Assembly (NCBI RefSeq): GCF_029760895.1
Contig: NZ_CP121679.1
Coordinates: 3,454,001-3,518,000 of the forward strand
DNA length: 64,000 nucleotides
From: Ancylobacter sp. WKF20
GTDB lineage: Bacteria; Pseudomonadota; Alphaproteobacteria; Rhizobiales; Xanthobacteraceae
Direction of reading: 5' to 3'
The position numbers and the translations under genes were made by a program. The notes below the pieces were generated by a model. The model made no database searches and had not been told where the DNA came from. It worked only from the letters and a program-made list of their open reading frames with translations. Positions within the stretch are counted from its first letter, which is position 1. Each line of letters opens with the position of its first letter. This document shows, piece by piece, positions 13,520-33,298 of this stretch.

Positions 13520-14437
13520 TCAGCCGTTCGCGAGGCGCCGGCAGACCTCGTCGAGCTGGTCGAGCGAGGCGTAGCGGATGCGGATTTCGCCCGCCTCGCC
13601 ATCATGGCGCAGCGTGACCTGGAGGCCGAGCTCGTCGGAGAGCCGGCGCTGCAGCGCCGCCGTATCGGCATCGAGTGCCGGGGGCGTGCGCGGCTTGCGC
13701 GTCGGCTTGCCGGCGGCTTCCGCCTTGGCCTCGTTCAGCTCCTGCGCCAGCGCCTCGATGGCGCGCACATTCATGCCGCGCTCGACGATCTCGCGCGCCA
13801 GCGTCTCCGGGTCGTCCTGCGTCAGCAGCGCGCGGGCATGGCCGGCGGAGAGGCGGCCATCGGCCAGATAGGCCTTCACGCTCTCCGGCAGGCGCAGGAG
13901 GCGCATCGTGTTGGCCACATGCGAGCGGCTCTTGCCGATCACCTTGGCGAGGTCGTTCTGCGAATAGCCGAACTGGTCGGCGAGCGACTGATAGCCTGCC
14001 GCCTCTTCCAGCGGGTTGAGGTCGGCGCGCTGGACGTTCTCGATGATGGCGATTTCCAGCGCCTGCCGGTCATCCACCTCGATGACGACGATCGGCACCT
14101 CGTGCAGGCCGGCGCGCTGCGAGGCGCGCCAGCGCCGCTCACCGGCGACGATCTCGTAATGCTCGCGATTGGCCGGATCGGCCCGCACCACGATGGGCTG
14201 GATGATGCCGCGCTCGCGGATCGAGGCGGCGAGATCCTCCAGATCCTCCTCGGCGAAGGTCCGGCGCGGGTTGTGCGGGTTCGGCTTGATGAAGGCGACC
14301 GGCACGCGCCGCGCGCCTCCCGCCGGCGCGGAACGGGCCCGCTCGCCGCCGAGATCGCTCATATCGGCCATATCGCCGATCAGGGCCGCAAGACCCCGCC
14401 CGAGCCGGTTGCGCCCGCCATCCTCGGCCATCGCCAT
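13520..14437 (-). CDS. parB: Chromosome-partitioning protein ParB
   Basis: ParB is a CTP-dependent clamp that loads at parS sites and spreads along DNA to build the segregation complex. The 305-residue protein has the conserved start LGRGLAALIG that contacts ParA, the CTP-binding motif GERRWRA at 99-105, a helix-turn-helix (LAKVIGKSRSHVANTMRLL, about 163-181) and a C-terminal dimerisation domain. It lies 12 bp downstream of parA. Four candidate parS sites are in this window. Confidence 0.98.
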   Translation of the reverse strand: MAMAEDGGRNRLGRGLAALIGDMADMSDLGGERARSAPAGGARRVPVAFIKPNPHNPRRTFAEEDLEDLAASIRERGIIQPIVVRADPANREHYEIVAGERRWRASQRAGLHEVPIVVIEVDDRQALEIAIIENVQRADLNPLEEAAGYQSLADQFGYSQNDLAKVIGKSRSHVANTMRLLRLPESVKAYLADGRLSAGHARALLTQDDPETLAREIVERGMNVRAIEALAQELNEAKAEAAGKPTRKPRTPPALDADTAALQRRLSDELGLQVTLRHDGEAGEIRIRYASLDQLDEVCRRLANG

Positions 14438-15338: not shown

Positions 15339-15992
15339 TCAATGCGTCGGCTTCAGCGGCTCGGCCGCCTCGACGATCACGATGCGCCCGCTTTTGTCGG
15401 TCAGGCTTTCTGTGATCTTAGCGTCGATTCTCCAAGATTTAGCTGACTCGGTCAATTCGTTATCAACATCTTGTCCCTTCAGGAACAGGCCGCGCGCGCC
15501 CTGTGCAAGGAAAGGGTGCGCCAGCTCCAGCAAACGCGGCAATGGCGCAAGCGCGCGGGCCGAAACGACCTCCACACCGGCGGCGATCTGCGGCGCGATC
15601 TGCTCGATGCGCGCCGGCAGCACCGTCGCCGGCAGCTCGGCAATGCGCGCCGCCTCGCGCAGGAAGGCCGCCTTGCGTGTGTCGCTCTCGACCAGGGTCA
15701 CATCCACCCCGTCGCGCTCGGCCAGAACGGCCGCAACGACGAGACCGGGAAAGCCGCCGCCGGAGCCGAGATCGACCCAGCGCCGAACCCCCTCACCCGC
15801 CAGCGGCACAAGCTGAAGCGAGTCGGCCACATGCCGCGTCCAGATCGTCGGCAGCGTCGCCGGGGCGATGAGGTTGATGGTGCGCTGCCACTTCTCCAGC
15901 AGCGCGACAATGGCGACGAGGCGGTCCTCTGTTTCACGTGAAACAGGGGTGAGGCGCAGGGCGCGGGCGCGGTCCGAATCGGTCGAGTTCAT
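15339..15992 (-). CDS. rsmG: 16S rRNA (guanine527-N7)-methyltransferase RsmG
   Basis: RsmG (GidB) methylates G527 of 16S rRNA using S-adenosylmethionine. The 217-residue protein has the SAM motif VDLGSGGGFPGL and the segment VSARALAPL that helps form the active site. The start at 15992 gives MNSTDSDRA; an in-frame ATG at 16019 is possible. A perfect 16-bp parS palindrome is embedded in the coding sequence at 15930-15945, encoding V-S-R-E-T. It lies between mnmG and parA on the same strand. Confidence 0.96.
   Translation of the reverse strand: MNSTDSDRARALRLTPVSRETEDRLVAIVALLEKWQRTINLIAPATLPTIWTRHVADSLQLVPLAGEGVRRWVDLGSGGGFPGLVVAAVLAERDGVDVTLVESDTRKAAFLREAARIAELPATVLPARIEQIAPQIAAGVEVVSARALAPLPRLLELAHPFLAQGARGLFLKGQDVDNELTESAKSWRIDAKITESLTDKSGRIVIVEAAEPLKPTH
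15930..15945. promoter_or_regulatory. parS site 1 (perfect consensus, inside rsmG)
   Basis: TGTTTCACGTGAAACA is a perfect 16-bp palindrome identical to the bacterial parS consensus (TGTTnCACGTGAAACA). It lies inside rsmG, 0.6 kb upstream of parA, and is the best-matching of the four sites in this window. ParB is expected to bind here. Confidence 0.95.
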
Positions 15993-18003: not shown

Positions 18004-18019
18004 TGATTCACGTGAAACA
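18004..18019. promoter_or_regulatory. parS site 2 (one mismatch)
   Basis: TGATTCACGTGAAACA differs from the parS consensus at one position (third base). It lies in the 200-bp gap between mnmE and mnmG, 48 bp from site 3. Confidence 0.8.
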
Positions 18020-18051: not shown

Positions 18052-18067
18052 TGTTTCACGTGAAACG
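18052..18067. promoter_or_regulatory. parS site 3 (one outer-base mismatch)
   Basis: TGTTTCACGTGAAACG keeps the full 14-bp core GTTTCACGTGAAAC and deviates only at the last base. It lies between mnmE and mnmG, about four and a half helical turns from site 2 (centre to centre), so two ParB clamps could load side by side. Confidence 0.88.
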
Positions 18068-21559: not shown

Positions 21560-21890
21560 CGGCCGAGCCTTGAGCATTTGCGGCGGGCATCAGGGATCGC
21601 GCGCCGCCAATTCTTCCACGGAAGGGCGGGACAAGAGGCACCGACGCGATCAGAGCGTGCGCGCGCAGCCTGTGCGCGACCTTGTGAGCACCTTGTGGGT
21701 AGGCCTGTGGATAAGTTGGGGAGAAATCGGCCCCATCCTACTCAACGGCTCAGAATTGACCGCTGGCGGGCATCTCGCCTTTTGCGAAGGATGTATCGGA
21801 CGACCCCGCAAATGGGCGTCCTGAGTCAATTCTGAAGGTCATCATTTCGGAACCGAAACACCTACTTAGGGGCGTTACGGACCGCTCGTT
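21560..21890. other. 331-bp gene-free gap with a perfect DnaA box and an inverted-repeat element
   Basis: No credible gene is present. TGTGGATAA at 21706-21714 is a perfect reverse DnaA box (TTATCCACA), with a weaker TGTGGGTAG at 21694. A short, more AT-rich segment at 21825-21865 separates this gap from the minus-strand membrane-protein gene. The inverted-repeat element inside the gap is listed separately. Because hemE is 3.5 kb away, I regard this as a possible secondary DnaA-binding locus rather than the origin. Confidence 0.5.
21750..21835. repeat. 86-bp element bounded by 11-bp perfect inverted repeats
   Basis: TCAGAATTGAC at 21750-21760 is perfectly inverted as GTCAATTCTGA at 21825-21835, with 64 bp between. 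Similarity weakly continues inward. The arms are more AT-rich than the surroundings. There is no coding potential inside. It could be a miniature transposable element, a structured RNA or a dimeric regulator target. I do not recognise it and only one copy is visible in this window. Confidence 0.5.
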
Positions 21891-22370
21891 TCAACCAAAG
21901 CGCGAACCGGGACGGCGCGGGCGCTCTTCCTTCCGCGTGAAGCGGATATTGGCGAACATCAGCGGCACCACCAGCAGCAGCGCGCCGGCAAGGTCCGCCT
22001 CGAGAATATAGAGGACGCCCAGCTCCTCGCGCACCGCCGGGCCGATGACGGGATCGGCGAAGTCGGCGATGAGGCTGGAGATGAACAGCGCCGATGGGAC
22101 CCAGATCGCCAGCGGCAGCCACCAGCGCCGGCAGGCCATCACCCAGCTCAGTGCGGCAGCGCCGATCACCAGAAGCCACAGCACGGGCACGGGAGGCTCG
22201 CGCTCGGCCATGCCGGCCAGCGCGATGGAGGGCGCCGCGAGCCAGAACGTCGCGGCCAGCGCAAGGCTCGCCGCGACGGAGCCATGGGAGAGGGTGGGAC
22301 AAAGCCGAGAGGGCAGCCGGTGCTGCCGAAGCCGCATGCCGCGAAGCCCGCTCATCAAATCCCCCTCCAT
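21891..22370 (-). CDS. Hypothetical four-span membrane protein
   Basis: 159 residues with four predicted hydrophobic spans (about 32-53, 61-80, 84-104 and 123-141) and a basic C-terminal tail (RFTRKEERPRRPGSRFG). The first ~28 residues are Arg/His-rich, and an alternative ATG at 22355 shortens them. I do not recognise a family. It lies downstream of rho on the same strand after a hairpin, so it may be a separate unit. The alternative frame covering the same DNA gives an arginine-rich, non-membrane product and is judged a shadow. Confidence 0.55.
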   Translation of the reverse strand: MEGDLMSGLRGMRLRQHRLPSRLCPTLSHGSVAASLALAATFWLAAPSIALAGMAEREPPVPVLWLLVIGAAALSWVMACRRWWLPLAIWVPSALFISSLIADFADPVIGPAVREELGVLYILEADLAGALLLVVPLMFANIRFTRKEERPRRPGSRFG

Positions 22371-24396: not shown

Positions 24397-25425
24397 TCAA
24401 CCGCGTAGACGTCGGATCATCTGCTCGACATGGGCAATCGGCGTTTCCGGCCGGATACCGTGCCCCAGATTGAAAATATGCGCCGCGCCGCGAAAATCCG
24501 CCATCAGCGTGTCGATGGCCCGGTCGAGCGCCGCCCCGCCGGCGATCAGCGCCAGCGGGTCGAGATTGCCCTGAAGGGCGAAGCGCCCGCCGAGGGCTCC
24601 GCGCACCGCCCGCCGGTCCGCCGTCCAGTCGAGCCCGACGCCGTTCACCCCGCTCGCCAGCGCCATCGAGGTGAGCCCGGCCTGCGTCGCGCCCTTCGGG
24701 AAGGCGATGATGCGGGCTTCGGGAATTTCTGCTCTCACTGCACTGACAATCCGCCTGATCGGCCTGACTGACCACTGCTCAAACGCTTCCGGATCGAGCA
24801 CCCCAGCCCAGGAATCGAAGATCTGGACCGCGTCCACCCCGGCCCGGAACTGGCCGATGAGATAGGTCGCGGACGCCTCCACCAGCTTGTCGATCAGCGC
24901 CGCGAAGAAGGCGGGATCGCGCATGGAGGCAAGGCGCGCGGGGGCCTGATCGGGCGTTCCCCGGCCCGCGATCATATAGGTCGCGAGCGTCCAGGGGGCG
25001 CCGCAGAAGCCGAGCAGCGTCGTCTCATCGGGCAGCCGAGCGCGGATTTCAGTGACCGCCTCATAGACCCGGTCGATCTTCGAGGCGTCGAGCTCAGTGC
25101 TCAAAGCATTGAGTTCATTGAGGTTCGTCACGGTGCTCAGCCGCGGGCCTTCGCCCTGCTCGAAGGTGAGGTCGCAGCCCAACGCGTGCGGGACGACGAG
25201 AATATCGGAAAACAGGATCGCCGCGTCGAAGCCGAAGCGGCGAATCGGCTGGAGCGTCACCTCGATCGCATGCTCGGGCGTGTAGCAGAGGGTGAGGAAA
25301 TCGCCGGCGGTTGCCCGCACCGCCCGGTACTCCGGCAGATAGCGTCCAGCCTGGCGCATCATCCAGATCGGCGTGCGGCTGGCGACATGACCGTCCAGCA
25401 CCGCTTTCACCACCCGCTCAGCCAT
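24397..25425 (-). CDS. hemE: Uroporphyrinogen decarboxylase
   Basis: HemE removes four carboxyl groups from uroporphyrinogen III to give coproporphyrinogen III. The 342-residue protein contains the conserved [16 protein letters not shown] motif near residue 20, the [13 protein letters not shown] region and the catalytic Asp in [12 protein letters not shown]. It is the leftmost gene transcribed away from the proposed replication origin, a position conserved in alphaproteobacteria. Confidence 0.98.
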
Positions 25426-25747
25426 TCTGTCCCCTGCCCTTCTGACTTAAGGAATCTTATTTAAATGAGAGTCGTAGGTGTTTAGGCGTGGGCATTAGAC
25501 GCGTTCCGGGCTCGCCACAACAAGCCCCCAGCCAAGCTCTCAGACAGGCCGCGGCCGCGTTGGACAAACGCTTTCCGATTCAAGAGCTTGCGCGGCTGCG
25601 GCAGATTATCCCCATAACTCAGGAAGACGACCTTGATTTGACTCACAGGCGGCGCGGCTGTGGACGGAAACGAGCGTCGTCAACAGGCCGGGGCTTGCTA
25701 ACGTCAGCAACCCATGGCTTGTTCCCAGCCTATGCACAGCCCTGTGG
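25426..25747. other. Proposed chromosomal replication origin (oriC)
   Basis: A 322-bp gene-free stretch between hemE (minus) and the PPSR gene (plus, the RP001 homologue), the location of the origin in Caulobacter and Rickettsia. Near-consensus DnaA boxes with one mismatch are TTATCCCCA (25606-25614), CTATGCACA (25730-25738) and TGTGGATGA (25743-25751, running into the next gene); TGTGGACGG at 25659 is weaker. An AT-rich segment at 25447-25466 could be the unwinding element. Four GANTC sites (25452, 25469, 25577, 25640) suit CcrM-dependent control. Genes on both sides point mostly away from it, and the parABS locus is close. Confidence 0.82.
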
Positions 25748-26617
25748 ATGAATGGTGTGACTGATCCGGGCCGTCAGGCGGAAAGCTATTACCACCTGCA
25801 CCTCGTCTCGGATTCCACCGGCGAGACGCTGATCAGCGTCGGTCGTGCGGCGGCGGCGCAGTACAGCGTGAAGCCGATCGAGCACATCTACCCGCTCGTG
25901 CGCACCCACCGGCAGCTCGACAAGGCTATTCAGGCGATTGAGGAATTCCCCGGCATCGTGCTCTACACGCTGACCGACCCGGAACTGCGCAATCGGCTGA
26001 AAATCTACTGTCAGAACAATGGCGTGCCGGTTCTCTCCGTTCTCGCCCCGGTGGTCCGGCTGTTCCAGGCCTATCTCGGCGGCGTGCCCGAGCCGCGCGT
26101 CGGCGGCCAGCACCAGCTCGATGGCGAGTATTTCCGCCGCATCGACGCGATGAACTTCACCGTCATGCATGACGACGGCCAGCACACGGACGGGCTTGAA
26201 GCCGCCGATGTCGTGCTGCTCGGCATCTCCCGCTCGTCCAAGACACCGACCAGCATCTATCTCGCCAATCGTGGCATCAAGACCGCCAATATCCCGCTGG
26301 TGCCGAACATTCCGATTCCGCCGGGACTTCCCCATCTCAAGCGGCCGCTGGTGGTGGGCCTCGTCGCCAGCGCGGAACGCGTGGTGGAGATCCGCCGCAA
26401 CCGACTGCTCGGGCTTAATGCCACGTCGTCGTCGCAGGATTCCTATGTGGACCGCGATGCCGTGGCCGAGGAGATCGCCTTTTCTCGCCGTCTCTGCGCC
26501 CGACATGGCTGGCCCGTGATCGACGTAACGCGCCGCTCCATCGAAGAAACGGCCGCCGCCATTATCGGGCTGCTGCAGGAACATCGTCGCAAGAGCTCTG
26601 AGGCCACAGGTGCCTGA
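25748..26617 (+). CDS. Pyruvate phosphate dikinase / PEP synthase regulatory protein (DUF299)
   Basis: A bifunctional serine/threonine kinase and pyrophosphorylase that inactivates PPDK or PEP synthase by ADP-dependent phosphorylation and reactivates it by phosphorolysis. The 289-residue protein has the family P-loop GISRSSKT (159-166) and the opening YYHLHLVSDSTGET. It is the homologue of the first gene right of the Caulobacter origin. Its start codon overlaps a DnaA-like box. The target enzyme gene is not in this window, so PPDK versus PEP synthase cannot be decided. Confidence 0.93.
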   Translation: MNGVTDPGRQAESYYHLHLVSDSTGETLISVGRAAAAQYSVKPIEHIYPLVRTHRQLDKAIQAIEEFPGIVLYTLTDPELRNRLKIYCQNNGVPVLSVLAPVVRLFQAYLGGVPEPRVGGQHQLDGEYFRRIDAMNFTVMHDDGQHTDGLEAADVVLLGISRSSKTPTSIYLANRGIKTANIPLVPNIPIPPGLPHLKRPLVVGLVASAERVVEIRRNRLLGLNATSSSQDSYVDRDAVAEEIAFSRRLCARHGWPVIDVTRRSIEETAAAIIGLLQEHRRKSSEATGA

Positions 26618-33282: not shown

Positions 33283-33298
33283 CGTTTCACGTGAAACG
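33283..33298. promoter_or_regulatory. parS site 4 (14-bp core, right of oriC)
   Basis: CGTTTCACGTGAAACG keeps the complete 14-bp parS core with both outer bases changed symmetrically, so it is still a perfect palindrome. It lies between the convergent ends of the XRE gene and hslU, about 7.7 kb to the right of the proposed oriC, opposite the three sites on the left. Confidence 0.82.

What the first reader, a model, noticed from the sequence alone, without database searches (positions are those of the whole stretch)
25426..25747. Chromosomal origin located between hemE and the DUF299 (RP001) gene
Gene order hemE - gap - DUF299 - maf - aroE - coaE - dnaQ - secB reproduces the origin region of Caulobacter and Rickettsia. 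The gap has three one-mismatch DnaA boxes, an AT-rich patch, and four GANTC sites in about 190 bp, far above what a high-GC genome gives by chance. No DnaA box in the gap is a perfect TTATCCACA, which is itself worth noting: binding may depend on weak boxes.
Basis: partly seen in the sequence, partly recalled or inferred. Interest (0 to 1): 0.72.

Follow-up and report, generated by a model that had tools for sequence, protein, structure and literature searches.

The report
Standard hemE-linked chromosome replication origin
The gap next to hemE is very probably where this bacterium starts copying its chromosome, as in well-studied relatives, so the find is ordinary; a second conserved site for the starter protein DnaA about 4 kb away is the less expected part.

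Summary
The window is from an Ancylobacter-group chromosome. hemE - 322-bp gap - DUF299 is confirmed and kept in 78 of 80 named loci, as at the mapped Caulobacter origin (PMC1914354, passages). The gap has an AT-rich block at a fixed place in 25 of 25 congeners, DnaA-box-like sites above shuffles, four GANTC sites and flanking parS sites. Oligomer asymmetry turns at window 26-38 kb; plain GC skew has its minimum 90 kb away.

Corrections: two boxes, not three, are one mismatch from TTATCCACA. Lack of a perfect box is usual (2 of 78 gaps have one, or 6 counting boxes just inside DUF299). GANTC enrichment is real but modest (P 0.0155).

Unexpected: one of three perfect DnaA boxes in the genome lies 3.7 kb left of the gap, in a noncoding element found in 19 of 19 Ancylobacter-group loci and 0 of 53 others. 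It is more likely an accessory DnaA site than the origin.

The parts
25426..25747 (.). putative chromosomal origin (oriC), hemE-DUF299 intergenic gap
   Evidence: aligned in 25 genomes of the genus; hemE and DUF299 adjacent in 78 of 80 named loci
25445..25484 (.). AT-rich block, candidate unwinding element (30% GC)
   Evidence: lowest 40-bp GC of the gap lies at -296 to -312 from DUF299 in 25 of 25 genomes
25606..25614 (+). DnaA-box-like TTATCCCCA (TTATCCACG in 14 of 25 congeners)
25730..25738 (+). DnaA-box-like CTATGCACA, one half of an inverted pair
25743..25751 (-). DnaA-box-like TCATCCACA, overlaps the DUF299 start; other half of the inverted pair
25659..25667 (-). very weak box-like site (CCGTCCACA, 3 mismatches by eye) with a conserved TGTGGA core
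   Evidence: alignment
25578..25590 (+). possible IHF site (ATTCAAGAGCTTG, one mismatch)
   Evidence: 10 of 25 genomes have a one-mismatch hit in the gap against 0.04 expected per gap; 0 of 25 meet the other consensus tried
25452..25456 (.). GANTC (GAATC)
   Evidence: at this position only in the window and L072
25469..25473 (.). GANTC (GAGTC), at -279/-278 also in many congeners
25577..25581 (.). GANTC (GATTC)
25640..25644 (.). GANTC (GACTC)
24397..25425 (-). hemE
   Evidence: Pfam URO-D
25748..26617 (+). DUF299/COG1806 (RP001 homologue), kinase/pyrophosphorylase
   Evidence: Pfam PF03618
14450..15307 (-). parA
   Evidence: Pfam AAA_31/CbiA
13520..14437 (-). parB
   Evidence: Pfam ParB_N, HTH_ParB
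15930..15945 (.). parS, perfect
18004..18019 (.). parS, one mismatch
18052..18067 (.). parS, perfect 14-bp core
33283..33298 (.). parS, perfect 14-bp core, on the other side of the gap
21691..21860 (.). second conserved noncoding element ('gap B'), candidate accessory DnaA site
   Evidence: model R1 match in the window; 19 of 19 Ancylobacter-group loci, 0 of 53 others
21706..21714 (-). perfect DnaA box TTATCCACA, one of three in the genome
   Evidence: perfect in 18 of 25 and within one mismatch in 24 of 25 genomes of the genus
21694..21702 (-). second, weaker box 12 bp away (CTACCCACA)
   Evidence: box at -12 within two mismatches in 14 of 25 genomes
21823..21827 (.). GANTC (GAGTC) invariant in the element
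   Evidence: 24 of 24 aligned sequences; L095 was not in this alignment

Best explanation
The 25426-25747 gap is the DnaA-dependent chromosomal origin (oriC), of the alphaproteobacterial hemE/COG1806 type. Inferred mechanism: DnaA binds cooperatively to a few weak boxes (TTATCCCCA; the inverted pair CTATGCACA / TCATCCACA at the DUF299 start; a weaker TGTGGA site between), possibly helped by IHF bending at 25578, and melts the AT-rich block beside hemE, where helicase is loaded and forks leave both ways. GANTC sites would become hemimethylated when the forks pass and be remethylated late by CcrM. ParB at the flanking parS sites would segregate the region. Shown here: gene context, conserved sequence blocks, box and GANTC enrichment, parS positions, strand-asymmetry turn, and dnaA, CcrM-type and GcrA genes. 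Inferred: DnaA binding, melting, firing, and any role of methylation.
For: hemE and DUF299 flank the gap in 30 of 30 loci fetched (38 of 41 genomes searched had a DUF299 match) and in 78 of 80 named loci. Conserved blocks in 25 genomes. AT-rich minimum at -296 to -312 in 25 of 25. Boxes above shuffles. GANTC above local density in 30 loci, 83 against 22.5, and above gap shuffles in 59 non-Ancylobacter gaps, 224 against 119. Four of the five parS-like sites of the genome lie in this window, on both sides of the gap. Oligomer asymmetry trained on 34 stretches outside the region has its minimum at window 26.0 kb (k=8) or 37-38 kb (k=3, 5, 6, 7). The GGGCAGGG support interval, 3479500-3499000, takes in part of the gap. 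The opposite GGGNAGGG switch is at 1.319 Mb. Caulobacter and Rickettsia precedent (PMC1914354, passages).
Against: Plain cumulative GC skew over 300 kb has its minimum at 3.570 Mb. The GGGNAGGG change point over the same 300 kb fits best at the far edge, with a support interval of 3498000-3639500 that excludes the gap; GGGCAGGG fits best at 3498000, 18 kb right of the gap. Arm-wide GC skew is only +0.010 and -0.010. No CtrA site in the window's gap. GANTC counts vary from 0 to 5 among congeners. The best DnaA box of the region lies outside the gap. Nothing was measured in cells.
Confidence: 0.91

Rival explanations
1. The real origin, or its DnaA-loading half, is gap B (21691-21860), and the hemE gap is only a regulatory region or the second half of a split origin.
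For: Perfect DnaA box, one of three in the genome. In G014 and G015 the only perfect box found in the genome is the one in gap B. Invariant GANTC in 24 of 24. The lowest-GC stretch lies 112-155 bases past the box in 22 of 25 genomes. Strand asymmetry cannot separate sites 4 kb apart.
Against: Only 6 of 25 genomes reach 35% GC or less in 40 bp near the box (range 17.5-47.5%; 40% in the window), a level that 25 of 25 hemE gaps reach. No IHF-like hit (0 of 25). Absent from 53 of 53 non-Ancylobacter loci, four of them too short to show it, whereas the hemE gap carries origin features across the order.
Confidence: 0.07
2. Gap B is an origin-proximal DnaA-binding control site of the datA/DARS kind, or a titration site, that tunes initiation at the hemE gap.
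For: Convergent intergenic place (YyaL-type gene + / orf159 -), no coding signal, DnaA box within one mismatch in 24 of 25, a second box 12 bp away within two mismatches in 14 of 25, 3.9-4.4 kb from the DUF299 start. E. coli datA is also a short intergenic box cluster near oriC (PMC10380432, passages).
Against: No IHF-like site, which minimal datA has. No functional data. Part of the element, without the boxes, also follows YyaL in other genera of the family, so some of the conservation has another cause.
Confidence: 0.35
3. Gap B is a DnaA- and methylation-responsive promoter for an unannotated small RNA, comparable in place to Caulobacter CcnA.
For: Conserved blocks with inverted repeats and a GANTC. 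The window's own 140 nt folds with z -2.1. CcnA shows that an ncRNA can sit at an alphaproteobacterial origin (PMC8959179, passages).
Against: No supported consensus fold (15 pairs, one with a compensatory change, energy -0.22 kcal/mol). Fold z-scores of six members range from -3.2 to +0.2. No Rfam match up to E 5.
Confidence: 0.25

Closest known systems
Caulobacter crescentus Cori (hemE / COG1806)
   Same: Same flanking genes, an AT-rich region, DnaA sites of only moderate or very weak affinity (PMC1914354, PMC4468827, PMC8959179, passages)
   Different: No CtrA site in the window's gap, where Cori has five (PMC1914354)
Rickettsia prowazekii origin (hemE / RP001)
   Same: Same flanking genes, gap of similar size (384 bp; PMC1914354, table passage)
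   Different: 82.6% AT there; 42% AT here (gap GC 0.58)
hemE-DUF299 gaps of other, mostly Hyphomicrobiales, genomes
   Same: 78 of 80 named loci keep the arrangement; GANTC and box enrichment shared
   Different: Box positions and spellings differ between genera
E. coli datA / DARS (for gap B only)
   Same: Short noncoding DnaA-box element outside oriC
   Different: No IHF-like site; genus-restricted; function untested

Membership tests
alphaproteobacterial hemE/COG1806 chromosomal origin | gap lies between hemE and COG1806 (DUF299) | tested here: met
alphaproteobacterial hemE/COG1806 chromosomal origin | several DnaA boxes above chance | tested here: met
   two within one mismatch of TTATCCACA, P 0.001; three for TTATNCACA, 0 of 2000 shuffles
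alphaproteobacterial hemE/COG1806 chromosomal origin | AT content above the genome average, with an AT-rich block | tested here: met
   gap GC 0.58 against 0.66 in the 8-kb locus and 0.686 in the window; block fixed in 25 of 25
alphaproteobacterial hemE/COG1806 chromosomal origin | IHF site | tested here: inconclusive
   one-mismatch hit at 25578; 0 of 25 with the consensus quoted in PMC1914354
alphaproteobacterial hemE/COG1806 chromosomal origin | CtrA sites TTAA-N7-TTAA (variable in the type: absent in Ehrlichia ruminantium per PMC1914354) | tested here: not met
   none in the window's gap even with two mismatches; 2 of 25 genomes (L094, L095) have a perfect one
alphaproteobacterial hemE/COG1806 chromosomal origin | replication strand asymmetry turns here | tested here: met
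   oligomer minimum at window 26-38 kb, i.e. within about 12 kb; but the plain GC-skew minimum is 90 kb off and the GGGNAGGG interval excludes the gap
alphaproteobacterial hemE/COG1806 chromosomal origin | replication starts here in cells; DnaA binds | not testable with these tools
   needs marker-frequency sequencing, ChIP, plasmid assay
E. coli-type datA (gap B) | DnaA boxes in a short noncoding locus near oriC | tested here: met
E. coli-type datA (gap B) | IHF site among the boxes | tested here: not met
   0 of 25
CcnA-like ncRNA (gap B) | conserved RNA structure or match to a known family | tested here: not met
   transcription itself not testable

The most novel reading that the evidence does not exclude
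The Ancylobacter group keeps its strongest DnaA-binding site outside the origin: gap B, about 4 kb from a weak-box oriC, is a genus-specific DnaA control element (loading, titration or nucleotide-switch site) under GANTC-methylation control, a new kind of origin-proximal initiation regulator in Alphaproteobacteria.
Probability: 0.22. Interest if true: 0.55.

Novelty: new member of a known kind. Interest (0 to 1): 0.27.

Why it matters
It gives the likely origin of an Ancylobacter-group chromosome whose contig starts about 31 kb from dnaA and about 1.15 Mb from this gap, so replichore-based analyses should be anchored here. It also shows that weak-box origins and GANTC clustering in this gap are widespread in the order, and it points to one specific extra DnaA site that can be tested.

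Tried and rejected
Plain GC skew as a locator: too weak. GGGNAGGG change point in 300 kb: best fit at the edge, interval excluding the gap. The same motif is sharp at the terminus (17 of 17 on one strand, then 26 of 27 on the other, around 1319070). I did not recognise a dif site by eye there and did not search for one.

Gap B as a small protein: the translated end looked conserved by eye, but codon positions are about equally variable (entropy 0.96, 0.87, 0.90 in 21 genomes) and upstream stops disagree (L091 and L092 were dropped before the count, L093 had no anchor, L095 was not given). Gap B as a structured RNA: no support. Model hits outside the family (L224, L225) lie beside a yggS-like gene (named by recall) and match only part of the model: taken as chance or shared hairpins. 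Gap B lacking any consistent AT-rich place: I first wrote this, and on recount it is wrong. The place is fairly constant (22 of 25) but weak; the odds of the gap B origin rival were raised from 0.05 to 0.07, and of the main reading lowered from 0.92 to 0.91.

The first alignment of the gap was wrong because loci on the minus strand had not been turned; redone. The YyaL query, whose hit ends set cut points, was translated in a shifted frame; no conclusion rests on it, and in-frame queries were used.

Stretches: 34 of 40 sampled stretches trained the oligomer score. Dropped were L045 and L063 (low-GC islands) and L047, L048, L066, L067 (inside the tested region). For k=8, 29 of 34 had the right sign when held out; other k were not cross-validated. 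One search counted 38 of the 40 by arm (L047 and L048 left out). In one search, 72 of 80 named loci were searched (left out: L157, L158, L173, L177, L178, L185, L189, L193). L138, not counted as adjacent because its contig ends 191 bases before DUF299, has a perfect DnaA box there.

Literature: seen as search listings and as passages of PMC1914354, PMC8959179, PMC3794950, PMC4468827, PMC11514494, PMC3667746, PMC10380432. No title listed there treats an Ancylobacter origin or gap B, but each listing showed only 10 to 25 rows, so this is weak evidence of absence. Labels such as dnaQ, YyaL, mnmE, yggS, the parS consensus and the use of GGGNAGGG as an orienting motif are recalled.

Full report
What is there. 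The window is G000:C1:3454001-3518000 of a single 4,630,237-base contig. The closest named relatives are Ancylobacter species. The 322-bp gap 25426-25747 lies between hemE (-) and a DUF299/COG1806 gene (+), followed by maf, aroE, coaE, a DnaQ-type exonuclease and secB (-). Farther left lie rho, mnmE, mnmG, rsmG (named from the sequence by recall), parA and parB. The best DnaA_C domain match is at about 31 kb of the contig, some 1.18 Mb from the gap if the contig is circular.

Is the observation above chance? In dinucleotide shuffles of the gap, four GANTC sites occur with P 0.0155, two one-mismatch boxes with P 0.001, and three TTATNCACA-like boxes in 0 of 2000 shuffles. Against local density GANTC has P 0.003. 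GANTC is depleted about threefold in the whole window (96 against 288), so the gap is an island of relief. Over 30 homologous gaps there are 83 GANTC sites against 22.5 expected from density. In 19 Ancylobacter-group gaps there are 40 against 21.4 from shuffles, and in 59 other gaps 224 against 119. The enrichment is therefore widespread and about twofold once base composition is allowed for. Single congeners have from 0 to 5 sites. One-mismatch boxes number 33 against 0.6 and 72 against 4.1 in the same two sets.

Conservation of the gap. Alignment of 25 gaps of the genus shows four conserved parts: an AT-rich block by hemE, a box spelled TTATCCACG in 14 of 25 (TTATCCCCA here), a TGTGGA core, and the inverted pair TATGCACAG-cc-CTGTGGATGA at the DUF299 start. 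The AT minimum is at -296 to -312 in 25 of 25, with 27.5-35% GC. In 78 of 80 named loci (the best 80 of 351 candidates) hemE and DUF299 flank such a gap. The exceptions are L138 (contig end) and L139 (no hemE match). Only L181 and L190 have a perfect box inside the gap. L175, L178, L180 and L185 have one that starts 8 bases inside the DUF299 start as extrapolated from the alignment, and L138 has one in its truncated gap. Of five loci from other families in the first set, L099 has a perfect box in the gap. The missing perfect box is therefore usual. In Caulobacter, boxes of moderate and very weak affinity are the rule, and raising their affinity can reduce replication (PMC4468827, passages).

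Position on the chromosome. Forty 20-kb stretches were sampled. GC skew is only +0.010 and -0.010 on the two arms (20 and 18 stretches), but GGGNAGGG is strongly biased: 62 to 11 against 16 to 68. An oligomer score trained on 34 of these stretches reaches its minimum at window 26.0 kb for k=8 and at 37-38 kb for k=3, 5, 6 and 7. The GGGCAGGG change point has a support interval of 3479500-3499000, which takes in part of the gap, and a best value of 3498000. Against this, the plain cumulative GC-skew minimum over 300 kb is at 3.570 Mb, and GGGNAGGG fits best at the edge, with an interval (3498000-3639500) that excludes the gap. So asymmetry puts the origin in or near this window but does not single out the gap. 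The opposite GGGNAGGG switch is sharp at 1.319 Mb, giving replichores of about 2.47 and 2.16 Mb. Four of the five parS-like sites of the genome (up to one mismatch) lie in the window, three to the left and one to the right of the gap.

Regulators. A CcrM-type RAMA domain and GcrA are encoded, so GANTC methylation is plausible. There is no CtrA site in the window's gap. Eighteen of 25 genomes have a site of the form TTCATACTT-NN-TTAA (one mismatch to TTAA-N7-TTAA) at the hemE edge, and L094 and L095 have a perfect one farther in. A possible IHF site at 25578 is weak evidence.

The second site. Perfect TTATCCACA occurs three times in the genome and 90 times in 30 genomes of the genus, 1 to 6 each. 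One of the window genome's three is at 21706, in a convergent intergenic region 3.7 kb left of the gap. In 25 genomes the site is perfect in 18 and within one mismatch in 24. In G014 and G015 it is the only perfect box found in the genome. A sequence model of the element finds 19 of 19 Ancylobacter-group loci and 0 of 53 others, four of which are too short to reach the place. In a draw of 149 family genomes, seven of the genus matched at E below 1e-32 and the next best was 4e-10; in 199 genomes of the order, the best match outside the family was 2e-5. Five weaker family matches lie behind YyaL and match only the part without the DnaA boxes. The element has no coding signal, no supported RNA fold and no IHF-like hit. 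Its lowest-GC stretch lies 112-155 bases past the box in 22 of 25 genomes, but only 6 of 25 reach 35% GC or less. The best reading is an accessory DnaA site; datA- or DARS-like control is the leading guess, with promoter use as alternative.

Verdict. The origin call is supported and ordinary: a new member of the hemE/COG1806 type described for Caulobacter and Rickettsia (PMC1914354, passages). Firing, DnaA binding and any methylation effect remain inferred.

Noticed in passing
window 21691-21860: Noncoding element with a perfect DnaA box and invariant GAGTC, restricted to the Ancylobacter group; see rivals.
   Followed up: yes
L115 6069-6086 (G000:C1 about 1319070): GGGNAGGG switches strand sharply (17 of 17, then 26 of 27), marking the likely replication terminus; no dif site was recognised by eye.
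   Followed up: partly
L094, L095 (hemE-DUF299 gap, about -192): Perfect CtrA-type site TTAA-N7-TTAA in two genomes of the genus only; the other 23, the window among them, lack it, which suggests gain or loss of CtrA control of the origin within the genus.
   Followed up: no
whole genome G000: TTATCCACA occurs 3 times while the same letters reversed occur 26 times, and the imbalance has the same direction in 30 of 30 genomes of the genus; selection against strong DnaA boxes or codon context could explain it.
   Followed up: no
L063 and L045 (G000:C1 2662000-2681999 and 3009000-3028999): Two 20-kb samples of 41% and 43% GC in a genome of about 68% GC: possible mobile islands.
   Followed up: no
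window 21891-22370 (-): Conserved 159-aa ORF without Pfam match between rho and gap B, found in 24 of 25 genomes of the genus; the one without it (L095) also lacks the gap B box.
   Followed up: no
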